This document shows positions 24,655 through 64,000 of a stretch of 64,000 nt of DNA, piece by piece. This stretch comes from Puccinia triticina (lineage: Eukaryota; Basidiomycota; Pucciniomycetes; Pucciniales; Pucciniaceae): assembly GCF_026914185.1 (NCBI RefSeq), contig NC_070560.1:6253501-6317500 (forward strand), written 5' to 3'. Position numbers and translations under genes: made by a program. Below the pieces are notes generated by a model. That model saw nothing but the letters and a program-made list of their open reading frames with translations, was not told the origin of the DNA and searched no databases. Each line of letters begins with the position of its first letter. Within the stretch, counting starts at the first letter, position 1.

Positions 24655-24661
24655 GTATCTG

Positions 24662-25128
24662 CAACGGTGGGCCAGCTACGCTAACTGTAGCGTTAGCGTA
24701 GCTGAATTCTGCTAACTTTTAGCATAGCATTAGCGGAATTGCTTCATCTCTGCACTAACGCTATGCGCACAGGGTGCGCAGCCATTTTAGCTGTTAGCGT
24801 AGTGTTAGCGCAGATGCGAGCAATGGCGCTAACGCTACACACAGAGGGCGCCAAAGAAAGCGCGCTTCGCTGCGCCACAGCGCTTTTAGCAGAAAAAAGG
24901 GCTGTTTTTCCGCTAAAAGCGCTGTAGCGCAGCGTAGCGTAGCTTAGCGACTGTAGCGGCGCGCTAACACTAACAAAAAATTGGCGCACTTTTAGCGCCG
25001 CTGAAAATCAGCGCAGCGTAGCGGCGCTAACTGCGCGCTAACGCTATTCAAAATTGGCGGGCGCTTTTTGCCGCTACACTAACATGTAGCACTGAAATAG
25101 CATAGTGTAGCGTAGCGGCCCACTGTTG
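24662..25128. mobile_element. non-autonomous element A1, CAAC...GTTG ends, 7-bp target duplication
   Basis: Left end CAACGGTGGGCC, right end GGCCCACTGTTG; read inward, both continue into GCTACGCTA. It is flanked by GTATCTG (24655-24661) and GTAGCTG (25129-25135), a 7-bp duplication with one difference. The 467-bp interior has no coding capacity. It is made of iterated self-complementary pieces (GTTAGCG, GCTAACGCTA, TAGCGCAGCG), so it could fold on itself along most of its length. A close relative lies at 63412-63764 and structurally similar elements at 31104 and 32015. Confidence 0.85.
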
Positions 25129-31088: not shown

Positions 31089-31103
31089 TATTGTTCCTAG
31101 GCC

Positions 31104-31948
31104 CAACAAAGGGTAGGTACGCCAAGGCTGAAACGCTGCGCTGCGCTGAAAAAAAAGCGGTCTTTTAGCGCAGCGCAGCGGGGAACCGCTGCGCGGTCAG
31201 CCCAAAAAGCGGTAGCGCAGCGCCAGTCCCGCTGCGCTACCGCTGAAAATAGCGGGGTCCCGCTTTTTTCCCGACCCAAAAAAGCGGTAGCGCAGCGGGC
31301 GGGGCCACTCCTTTCAGCGCCGCGCAGCGGCCACCAAAACAGCTGCGCTTTGCGCTGCGCTGCGCTTTTTTGGCTGGCAGCGGGGGAGCGCTACGCAGCC
31401 AGCTCAAAAAGCGGTAGCGCAGCGATGGTTCCGCTGCGCTACCGCTGAAAGTAGCGGGTCCCTGCTTCTTGCCAGACCCAAAAAGCGGTAGCGCAGCGGG
31501 CGGGGCCGCTACTTTCAGCGCAGCACAGCGGCCACCAAAACCGCTGCGCTTCACACTGCGCTTTCACCCTTGGTTACGCTACGCGTAACGCGTAGATAAC
31601 GGTAACGTAACACAATTTTTCTCGTTATCTACACGTTACGCGTAATGGCGGTGCGATTAAGTTATTTCACCACATTAAGCCATTTTTTTATACTCGCTGT
31701 GTTATCCGGGCGCGCGGAGCCCCTGAGAACGGGCAAAAAATGAGGCAAAAAAGCCTTAAATGGCCCGTTATTGCGTTATCCGGGGGATAACACAATAACG
31801 GGCCTCAAAAATGAGGCCTGTTACGTTACGCGCAGGGCCTGAAATGACCCCGTTACTAGTAAAGTAACGGGGGGGGGCCGGATAACGGGGGTAATTACGT
31901 TACCAAAATTGCGCGGATAACGCAACGTAACGTGACAACCCTTTGTTG
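31104..31948. mobile_element. non-autonomous element B1, CAACAAAGGG ends, 7-bp target duplication
   Basis: The ends CAACAAAGGG and CCCTTTGTTG are perfect 10-bp inverted repeats, flanked by an exact 7-bp duplication CTAGGCC (31097-31103 and 31949-31955). The 845-bp interior has two parts. From 31120 to 31565 are iterated AAAGCGGTAGCGCAGCG / CGCTGCGCTACCGCT motifs arranged as two ~201-bp tandem units. From 31570 onward are TTACGCGTAAC, GATAACGGTAACG and GGATAACGC motifs shared with the neighbouring element B2. No coding region is present. The second part may be a nested sister element. Confidence 0.88.
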
Positions 31949-32014
31949 CTAGGCCCCCCTTTGGACCTTGCTGGGGGGCTCTCTAGTTGTGTGTTCTAAG
32001 TCCGCACCTTGGAC

Positions 32015-33302
32015 CAACAAAGGGTAGTTACGCTACGCGTAACACTTAGATAACGGTAACGTAACGGAATTTTTGCCGTTATCTACGTGTTACGCGTAAC
32101 ATTTGAGAGAAATAGGAAAACTGAAGAGATTGCATTTCTTATGAGTAACAGTTAAAAATAAATACAATAATTAATGGGTTTAGTTTTACCTGAAGGCAGA
32201 TAGAATCCTACAGCCTATTTGAGTTGACCTGACAAAAGACTTGAGACGTTAAGATTTTAAATAACAAAAATTTGTTTATCTTTCTGGTTGTTAAACAAAG
32301 AAGAACAGATGATTAGCTCTTAATCATGTTTTTGTTTTGTCAGGTTTGAGTTGAAAAGAAAGAACAACTTTACTTTGACAGATGATGGTTGTTAAACTAA
32401 GATTGAGTAAAGTGCTCTTAAGCAGTGTTGCTTTTCCGCTTGTTGATGATTGGCAAGCTTATTTGGTTTGTTAAACTCAAAATACTACTGTTTGAGTTTT
32501 AAGATATAGATTTGCTTTTAAGTCATTATATCTTAAATGGTTTGTGAAATGTCATATTACTTACGAGTTAATCACACTTAGTTGACTGTTTTGGGTTTTG
32601 GTTTGAACTTCAATTTCAAGGTTTGAACTGATCAGGAAGATAAGTTATAAGCTTATTTGATCTTTCTACATAAGGAAATCTAAGGCTGACTCACTTGGAG
32701 CTTGATGATCGAAGATCAATAAGTTTTTGAGTGATGACTTCAGTTGTGTCACCATGTGATTCAAGAGCGCAAGGCTTCTTGTGGTTTGCCTTGTCCAGGA
32801 TACCTGTCACAAGATTTGAAACAAAATGAATTTGCATATTCATATTTTTGTTTTAATGAGTGTACTCAAGGTACTACTCACCTTGGTTACTCCTCTTAAG
32901 AGGGTGAAGCTGATTCCAACAATGTTGGTGCAATTACATTATTGCACCACAGGAAGGCTCTTATTTTTATGTTATTTACGTTATTGGGGCACACATGGCC
33001 CCTGATAACAAGCAAACATCAAGGCAAAAACAGCCTCCAATGGTCTGTTTTTATGTTGGCCGCTGATATCAAGCAAATATTAAGGCAAAAACAGCCTTAA
33101 TTGGTCTGTTTTTGTGTTATCCTGCGGATAATGCACCAACGGGCCGCTTTTTTGAGGCCTGTTACATTACGTGCGGGGCTTAATTGGGGTGGCTTAAAAT
33201 TACCCCATTATTAGTAAAGTAACAGGGAGCCCCGGGTAATGAGGGTAGTTATGTTACCCAAAAATGTCAGATAACATAGATTAATGTAACTGCCCTTTGT
33301 TG
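32015..33302. mobile_element. non-autonomous element B2, CAACAAAGGG ends, 7-bp target duplication
   Basis: The ends are CAACAAAGGGTAGTTAC and, inverted, CAACAAAGGGCAGTTAC, flanked by an exact 7-bp duplication CTTGGAC (32008-32014 and 33303-33309). It is 1,288 bp long. The left 90 bp and right ~370 bp consist of TTACGCGTAAC, GATAACGG and GGATAA words shared with B1. The middle (~32110-32930) is AT-rich with TTTGTTAAAC / GTTTAAC words and has no coding frame. The same host repeat without this insertion lies at 44637-44650 (CTCGGACATG). Confidence 0.9.
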
Positions 33303-33455
33303 CTTGGACATGTAATCAAGTCACCAAGTCTGAGCATCTTATCACCAGACCCATCCAGATCCATTCTCTTCTGGTCATACCTCCGTGGTCACATCTCCCT
33401 TCCCCACTCAAAGTCTTCAAGTGAAACTTTAACAGCACTCCCTTAAGGAGTAGCA

Positions 33456-63240: not shown

Positions 63241-63411
63241 TATCCTTGCCTTTGATTTGATGAGTTTGATGAGTTTGAGTCAAGGTATGTTGAGCCAAAC
63301 GAGACTGTAAATCTGTTAATCAACAAACTAAAGGTTGTATTTCTAATAAGCTCTTCTGAAGAAATACACGCGATAAAATAAAGAAAAGAAGAAAAGTAAA
63401 TATACCTAAAG

Positions 63412-63764
63412 CAACAGTGGGTCAGCTACGCTAACATAGCTGTTAGCGTAGCGTAGCGCAGCGCAAATGCGCTATTTTTTAGCGTAGCAAGAGCGCGCGC
63501 TATGCTGCGCTAAAGCGTTTTTTGCAGCAAAAAAGTGCCTTTTTTCCGCTAAAAGCGCTTTAGCGCAATGTAGCGTAGCGTAGCGGCTGTAGCGCAGCGC
63601 TAACGCTAAACAAAAATTGGTATGCTGTTAGCGCCGCTGAAAATTAGTGAAGTGTAGCGGCGCTAACAGCGCGCTAACGCTATTCAAAAAAGGTTGGCGC
63701 TTTTTGGCGCTACGCTAAACTTTAGGGCTAAAATAGCGTAGTTTAGCGTAGCGGCCCACTGTGG
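63412..63764. mobile_element. non-autonomous element A2 inserted in the Copia-2 LTR, 7-bp target duplication
   Basis: Left end CAACAGTGGGTC, right end GGCCCACTGTGG; both run inward into GCTACGCTA. The exact duplication CCTAAAG flanks it (63405-63411 and 63765-63771). The other LTR of the same retrotransposon has the uninterrupted sequence ATACCTAAAGGCAAG (near 58755), so the insertion boundaries are directly visible. The 353-bp interior repeats GTTAGCG / CGCTAAC-type words like element A1 (24662) and is non-coding. Confidence 0.92.
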
Positions 63765-64000
63765 CCTAAAGGCAAGAATAACAATGATGATGGAAACGCG
63801 AGAGAATAGAAGGCACCGGACACAACAACAAACTAAAAAGAAATTAATGTTAATATTGATGACCGCAAGGAGAATGTGAATAACAGGGATCAGTCAGAAC
63901 CTACGAGTCAAATGAGATAGGTTGATGATTGAGGTCAAAGTCGGCGAGTCAATCAAAGAAGGGATATGACACAACGGTCAGGTTAAAGTCGGCGGTTTGT

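What the first reader, a model, noticed from the sequence alone, without database searches (positions are those of the whole stretch)
31104..33302. A group of elements with CAAC...GTTG ends and 7-bp target duplications that fits no superfamily I can name
Four elements share 5'-CAAC...GTTG-3' ends followed by a GGG word, and all four are bounded by 7-bp duplications: CTAGGCC, CTTGGAC, CCTAAAG (all exact) and GTATCTG/GTAGCTG (one difference). They fall in two sequence groups: A (CAACAGTGGGCC, 24662 and 63412) and B (CAACAAAGGG, 31104 and 32015). None encodes a transposase. Known superfamilies mostly give 2-5, 8 or 9-11 bp duplications. A consistent 7 bp with CAAC ends suggests an unusual or undescribed transposase family in this lineage.
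Basis: partly seen in the sequence, partly recalled or inferred. Interest (0 to 1): 0.88.

Follow-up and report, generated by a model that had tools for sequence, protein, structure and literature searches.

The report
Miniature hAT7 transposons in rust fungus
These short insertions, in what is likely the wheat leaf rust genome, are flanked by 7-base repeats like those of a larger mobile element there that carries a hAT transposase domain, so they are likely passengers of the recently named hAT7 transposons and not a new superfamily.

Summary
In detail: all four elements exist with 7-bp flanking duplications (three exact, one with one difference). One detail is off: the right end of 63412-63764 reads GTGG. 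Both elements in the finding's span are composites, a ~388-bp and a ~451-471-bp miniature element, each split by another repeat. Of 25 copies with both ends read, 18 have an exact 7-bp duplication, 4 have one difference, none has 8 bp.

"Fits no superfamily" fails for group A. A 12,981-bp element in the same genome has CAACACTGGG ends, an exact 7-bp duplication, a hAT dimerisation domain (PF05699) near one end and a Tet-like domain inside; the two ends of 63412-63764 match its two ends. Of 16 relatives of its transposase, 11 termini were read; all 11 show CARC(A/G)(C/G)TGGG. This fits hAT7, hAT transposons with 7-bp duplications described from Puccinia in December 2025 (PMC12730594).

Group A is therefore non-autonomous hAT7. 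Group B (CAACAAAGGG) shares the 7-bp duplication, the NYNNNRN target preference and the end pattern, and has a 5,730-bp copy whose interior I could not read. B's assignment is likely, not proven: its ends fail the Repbase one-mismatch rule.

The parts
24655..24661 (.). left 7-bp target duplication GTATCTG of A1
24662..25128 (.). A1: 467-bp non-autonomous hAT7-type element, ends CAACGGTGGGCC / CAACAGTGGGCC (reverse complement of right end)
   Evidence: left end 80% over 41 bp and right end 88% over 34 bp to the two ends of the hAT7 element on C2
25129..25135 (.). right target duplication GTAGCTG (one difference)
31097..31103 (.). left target duplication CTAGGCC of B1
31104..31948 (.). B1: group B miniature element (about 388 bp without its insert), ends CAACAAAGGGTA / CAACAAAGGGTT
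31122..31573 (.). 452-bp other repeat nested inside B1, ends CCAAGGCTGAAA / CCAAGGGTGAAA (reverse complement); possible 5-bp duplication TTACG with one difference
31949..31955 (.). right target duplication CTAGGCC of B1
32008..32014 (.). left target duplication CTTGGAC of B2
32015..33302 (.). B2: group B miniature element (451-bp subtype, about 471 bp in two pieces here), ends CAACAAAGGGTA / CAACAAAGGGCA
32104..32924 (.). about 0.82 kb other repeat nested inside B2 (boundaries approximate); has copies elsewhere without the B2 ends
33303..33309 (.). right target duplication CTTGGAC of B2
63405..63411 (.). left target duplication CCTAAAG of A2
63412..63764 (.). A2: 353-bp non-autonomous hAT7-type element; left end 91% identical over 46 bp to the transposase-side end of the hAT7 elements on C2 and C4, right end 82% over 55 bp to the other end of the C2 element; right terminus reads GTGG
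63765..63771 (.). right target duplication CCTAAAG of A2

Best explanation
The four elements are insertions without a transposase gene, flanked by 7-bp target duplications; group A shares its ends with larger elements of this genome that carry a hAT transposase domain, and both groups are likely non-autonomous members of the hAT7 lineage, moved in trans by its transposase. Shown: the ends, the duplications, the hAT dimerisation domain inside CAAC-ended elements, and the match of A2's two ends to the two ends of one such element. Inferred from established hAT biochemistry (Hermes/Ac-type, recalled): the transposase would bind the terminal and subterminal repeats, cut the element out and insert it at a 7-bp staggered cut. 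The preferred target NYNNNRN is read from the duplications. Group A elements likely arose by internal deletion of hAT7 elements. Group B is placed in the same lineage by duplication length, target preference and end pattern only.
For: 7-bp duplications: 18 of 25 copies exact, 4 with one difference, 1 with two, 2 none; none exact at 8. Coding partner: element C2:8944580-8957560 (12,981 bp). Its left junction is the only genome match to ATTTACGCAACANNGGG; its right end is followed by ATTTACG; of lengths 1-12 only 7 matches. PF05699 lies near its right end (E 3.5e-11, 43.2 bits, cut-off 21.4). A Tet-like PF20515 domain at 8946712 lies upstream on the same strand. The sister copy at C4:3938220 has the same end, PF05699 at 4.3e-11, and PF14372 at 25.8 bits, just under its cut-off of 27. 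Of 16 relatives of that transposase exon at 43% identity or more, termini were read for 11, and 11 of 11 show CARC(A/G)(C/G)TGGG, 10 of them CAAC. 11 of 16 have a Tet-like domain within 10 kb upstream on the same strand (103 of the listed Tet places typed in; expected 0.4% each), the gene order published for some hAT7 families. A2's left end matches the transposase-side terminus (91% over 46 bp, E 2e-12 in a 14-sequence set) and its right end the other terminus of the C2 element (82% over 55 bp; 84% over 57 bp for the A copy L084). Target preference: Y at position 2 in 22 of 22 duplications and 10 of 10 coding-copy flanks; R at position 6 in 17 of 22 and 8 of 10.
Against: Group B's first 11 bases differ at 2 positions from the nearest hAT7 end, more than the one mismatch of the Repbase naming rule (passage read). 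No transposase was read inside a B-ended element. End polarity is not uniform: A1's right end also matches the transposase-side termini of L122-L124 (91% over 22 bp), so the deletion model is clean only relative to the C2 element. The right end of the C4 copy was not found: no exact duplication nearby. L114 (C1:4428609) shares the 20-bp end but differs soon after, with no right end within 1 kb; not followed. L128/L129, from a 36%-identical transposase family, showed no CAACNNNGGG terminus in the stretch read.
Confidence: 0.87

Rival explanations
1. Group B (CAACAAAGGG) belongs to a separate, undescribed transposase family that happens to share a 7-bp duplication and CAAC ends with the hAT7-related group A.
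For: Two mismatches in the first 11 bases against the hAT7 ends; no B-ended hAT gene read.
Against: B alone shows the same target preference (Y at position 2 in 14 of 14 of its duplications with at most one difference, counted from the table) and the same end pattern CAACNNNGGG..AGNTACGNTA.
Confidence: 0.08
2. The elements are moved by a KDZ (Kyakuja/Dileera) transposase; published Kyakuja elements also give 7-bp duplications with CA..TG ends.
For: KDZ genes are abundant here (185 matches), and Kyakuja has 7-bp duplications (PMC12730594, passage). One boundary between two KDZ loci (L023/L028) begins (T)CAACRATC, without GGG; whether it is a terminus is unclear.
Against: In 30 KDZ loci (3.5-3.8 kb each, 30 of 185 matches) CAACNNNGGG occurs here and there, but a facing pair was seen only in L013 and its relative L035, inside the element and without matching flanks. 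The KDZ group with a clear common boundary (L013, L017, L019, L020, L035) ends in CACCTATG. Published Kyakuja elements have no inverted repeats, while the five elements measured here have 10-18 bp.
Confidence: 0.03
3. The partner is one of the common Ac-like hAT families of this genome (TAGGGATG-type ends).
For: They are the highest-scoring hAT matches.
Against: 50 of the 150 listed hAT matches were sampled (30 loci, 20 downstream stretches). A boundary could be read for 38 of the 50, and each is TARGGNTG-like; 12 of the 50 gave no usable boundary. One further element with both ends has an exact 8-bp duplication.
Confidence: 0.01

Closest known systems
hAT7 (hAT families with 7-bp target duplications, Kojima 2025, PMC12730594)
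   Same: 7-bp duplications; hAT transposase domain; Puccinia including P. triticina; Tet-like gene upstream of the transposase in the same orientation (published for hAT7-1_PCor, hAT7-2_PCor and hAT7-1_PHor; 11 of 16 here)
   Different: The window copies are about 0.35-0.47 kb without their nested inserts and lack the genes; the main text, searched, has 'MITE' 0 times and 'non-autonomous' once (about TET genes); group B ends differ at 2 of 11 positions from the hAT7 ends seen here
canonical hAT (Ac/Tam3 type)
   Same: PF05699 dimerisation domain; short inverted repeats
   Different: 7-bp rather than 8-bp duplication; ends CAACNNNGGG rather than the TARGGNTG-like ends of the other hAT families sampled here
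hAT MITEs (for example of plants and Drosophila; recalled, only listings seen)
   Same: short, many copies, share ends with an autonomous hAT
   Different: 7-bp duplication and CAAC ends
Kyakuja (KDZ)
   Same: 7-bp duplication, CA..TG ends
   Different: no inverted repeats in the published cases; KDZ transposase, not hAT

Membership tests
hAT7, for group A | 7-bp target duplication | tested here: met
   5 of 9 A copies exact, 2 with one difference, 1 with two, 1 none; the C2 coding element exact
hAT7, for group A | ends shared with an element that encodes a hAT transposase domain | tested here: met
hAT7, for group A | Repbase rule: same duplication length and at most 1 mismatch in positions 1-11 of the end | tested here: met
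   rule read; A2 left against C2 right end 1 mismatch, A1 left against L122 0 mismatches
hAT7 | transposase falls in the published hAT7 clade | not testable with these tools
hAT7 | Tet-like gene in the coding relatives (TET+ subset) | tested here: met
   11 of 16 relatives within 10 kb upstream, same strand; not a requirement for all hAT7
hAT7, for group B | 7-bp target duplication | tested here: met
   12 of 15 B copies exact, 2 with one difference, 1 none (table: winB1, winB2, L071-L082, C8Blong)
hAT7, for group B | Repbase rule: at most 1 mismatch in positions 1-11 of the end | tested here: not met
   2 mismatches, CAACAAAGGGT against CAACACTGGGT; so B is called likely, not filed firmly
hAT7, for group B | hAT gene inside a B-ended element | tested here: inconclusive
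   5,730-bp B copy found but only its two ends could be read
canonical hAT | 8-bp target duplication | tested here: not met
   positive control with 8 bp
Kyakuja/KDZ | KDZ transposase in an element with these ends | tested here: inconclusive
   not seen in 30 of 185 KDZ matches, nor near the A and B ends listed when compared by eye; those lists are capped

The most novel reading that the evidence does not exclude
Group B is driven by its own, not yet described autonomous family, represented by the 5,730-bp element C8:877001-882730: either a Tet-less sister of hAT7 with CAACAAAGGG ends or, more boldly, a non-hAT transposase that converged on CAAC ends and a 7-bp cut.
Probability: 0.12. Interest if true: 0.5.

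Novelty: new member of a known kind. Interest (0 to 1): 0.3.

Why it matters
It largely settles an apparent orphan: group A of these 7-bp, CAAC-ended elements is not a new superfamily but a set of miniature relatives of hAT7 elements, many of which carry a Tet-like gene. It adds three testable facts about hAT7: its ends in this genome, a symmetric NYNNNRN target preference, and high-copy derivatives that would have to borrow a transposase to spread. It also warns that CAACAAAGGG alone is a poor probe, because it also encodes a TTKG stretch of hAT transposases.

Tried and rejected
Pfam Tet_JBP PF12851 gave no match (the tool says this does not show absence), so PF20515 was used instead. The first CAACAAAGGG-plus-hAT coincidence (C1:4166222) turned out to be coding sequence. 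C3:2183478 looked like an end beside a hAT domain but is a 476-bp group A copy with its own ATGTCAA duplication. C16:1607375, a hAT domain beside a Tet-like domain, has a TAGGGATG end on one side and no convincing 7-bp pair. C2:422826 is coding. L128/L129 showed no CAACNNNGGG terminus. The search of solved structures with one exon piece gave nothing convincing (best E 0.12). Literature on miniature or 7-bp elements of this kind; beyond PMC12730594, which I read in part, nothing of the kind caught my eye in the listings; the query was rejected for its syntax and not repeated, so absence from print is not claimed.

Full report
Where this is. The window lies in a 122.8-Mb genome of 18 contigs. 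A wheat leaf rust (Puccinia triticina) haplotype is the likely source: published haplotypes are 123.9 and 121.6 Mb with about 77% transposable elements (PMC12210899, passages read).

The observation. All four elements and their 7-bp flanks are there, with one correction: the right end of 63412-63764 reads GTGG. None has a stop-free stretch over 114 aa, and the longest frame of each matches no Pfam family. The two elements inside the finding's span are composites. Without its 452-bp insert, 31104-31948 is about 388 bp, a common length among the B copies read. 32015-33302 consists of 89 bp plus about 382 bp of a 451-bp subtype around a 0.82-kb repeat that occurs elsewhere by itself. So 845 and 1,288 bp are not natural lengths of the family.

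Not chance. Extended group A ends occur 172+/172- against 2/3 for the reversed pattern, and group B ends 94+/72- against 0/0. For duplications I took 12 B pairs from C1 and C2, seven A places on C1 and C2, and three further copies met on the way (L070, L111 and the long C8 copy). Two of the seven A places (L088, L089) had no right end inside the 520 bp read and were dropped before the count. With the four window elements and the C2 element, 25 copies have both ends: 18 exact 7 bp, 4 with one difference, 1 with two, 2 without; none exact at 8. Mismatched left/right pairs gave 0 of 600 exact and 5 of 600 with at most one difference. The B pairs were chosen for having intact ends, so the sample favours well-kept copies.

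Finding the partner. The common hAT genes here are not it: 50 of 150 listed PF05699 matches were sampled; the boundary could be read for 38, each TARGGNTG-like, and 12 gave none. Another hAT element (L069) with both ends has an 8-bp duplication. In the KDZ sample (30 of 185) no element with such ends and matching flanks was seen. Three rarer ends, CAACACTGGGTCAGCTACGC, stood out among the 100 places listed. One (L114) soon differs from the others and was not followed. The copy at C4:3938220 carries, on the minus strand, exons of a hAT transposase: PF05699 at E 4.3e-11, and PF14372 at 25.8 bits, just under its cut-off of 27. The copy on C2 is bounded by ATTTACG at both ends. Its left junction pattern occurs once in the genome, 12,981 bp from the right end, and only 7 bp match. 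It holds the same hAT exon and a Tet-like domain upstream on the same strand. The other end of the C4 copy was not found.

Generality. An exon of that transposase has 16 relatives at 43% identity or more, itself included. I read the terminus of 11. Three (L119-L121) plus C2 and C4 read CAACACTGGGTCAGCTAYGC, three (L122-L124) read CAACGGTGGGCCGCTAC, L125 reads CAACGGTGGGCTGATAC, and L126/L127 read CARCGGTGGGCAGATACG. Two of the 16 (C2:3893361 and C2:3918713) lie 25,352 bp apart with Tet-like places at the same spacing, so they are probably one event. Eleven of 16 have a Tet-like domain within 10 kb upstream on the same strand, two more at 14 and 18 kb, three none.

Link to the window. A2's left 46 bp are 91% identical to the transposase-side terminus of these elements, and its right 55 bp are 82% identical to the opposite terminus of the C2 element. 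A1 behaves the same way (80% over 41 bp, 88% over 34 bp). Relative to the C2 element the polarity is kept, as expected for an internal-deletion derivative. Against a simple picture, A1's right end also matches the transposase-side termini of L122-L124 (91% over 22 bp), so another subgroup has the ends the other way round. Group B matches the two ends of the 5,730-bp C8 element (94% over 50 bp for B1's right end, 89% over 46 bp for B2's left end), whose inside I could not read. The targets agree: position 2 is a pyrimidine in 22 of 22 duplications and in 10 of 10 coding-copy flanks, and position 6 is a purine in 25 of 32; pyrimidines at the other five positions number 11-17 of 32.

What is known. 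PMC12730594 (outline, searched passages and figure legends read; supplement and figures not seen) names hAT families with 7-bp duplications hAT7, reports 20 Tet-bearing families from six Puccinia species including P. triticina, and describes a Tet gene upstream of the transposase in the same orientation for some. Group A fits that lineage; group B likely does.

How it likely works (inferred). The hAT7 transposase would bind the CAACNNNGGG ends and the subterminal GTAGCG/TACGC repeats, excise the element and insert it with a 7-bp stagger at NYNNNRN. Miniature copies keep the ends and lose the genes, so they would depend on transposase made elsewhere. The chemistry is recalled from studied hAT transposases and was not tested here.

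Noticed in passing
L069 (C1:4166101-4176100), C1:4243596, C1:4320971: A CAACAAAGGG place and a hAT domain recur at the same 5,060-bp distance three times on C1, 77,374-77,375 bp apart, which looks like a tandem triplication of a ~77-kb segment (or an assembly duplicate).
   Followed up: no
window 31122-31573: 452-bp GC-rich repeat with CCAAGGNTGAAA ends and CGCTGCGC-rich interior, with a possible 5-bp duplication; superfamily not identified.
   Followed up: no
window 32104-32924: 0.82-kb repeat with diverged full or partial copies (67-88%) on C15, C3, C18, C16 and C9; solo-LTR-like TG..CA edges but no clean duplication.
   Followed up: partly
L113, L069, L116: CAACAAAGGG (in L116 a close variant) also encodes TTKG in the hAT stretch VWTTKGNRF, inflating genome counts of the bare 10-mer.
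   Followed up: yes
L013, L017, L019, L020, L035: A KDZ transposon group with CACCTATG termini and several near-identical copies.
   Followed up: partly
L091, L092, L096, L103: hAT groups with TAAGGCTG, TAAAGGTG or TAAGGGTG ends; L091 and L092 are 96% identical, and one search lists further places with the same 502-aa open frame.
   Followed up: no
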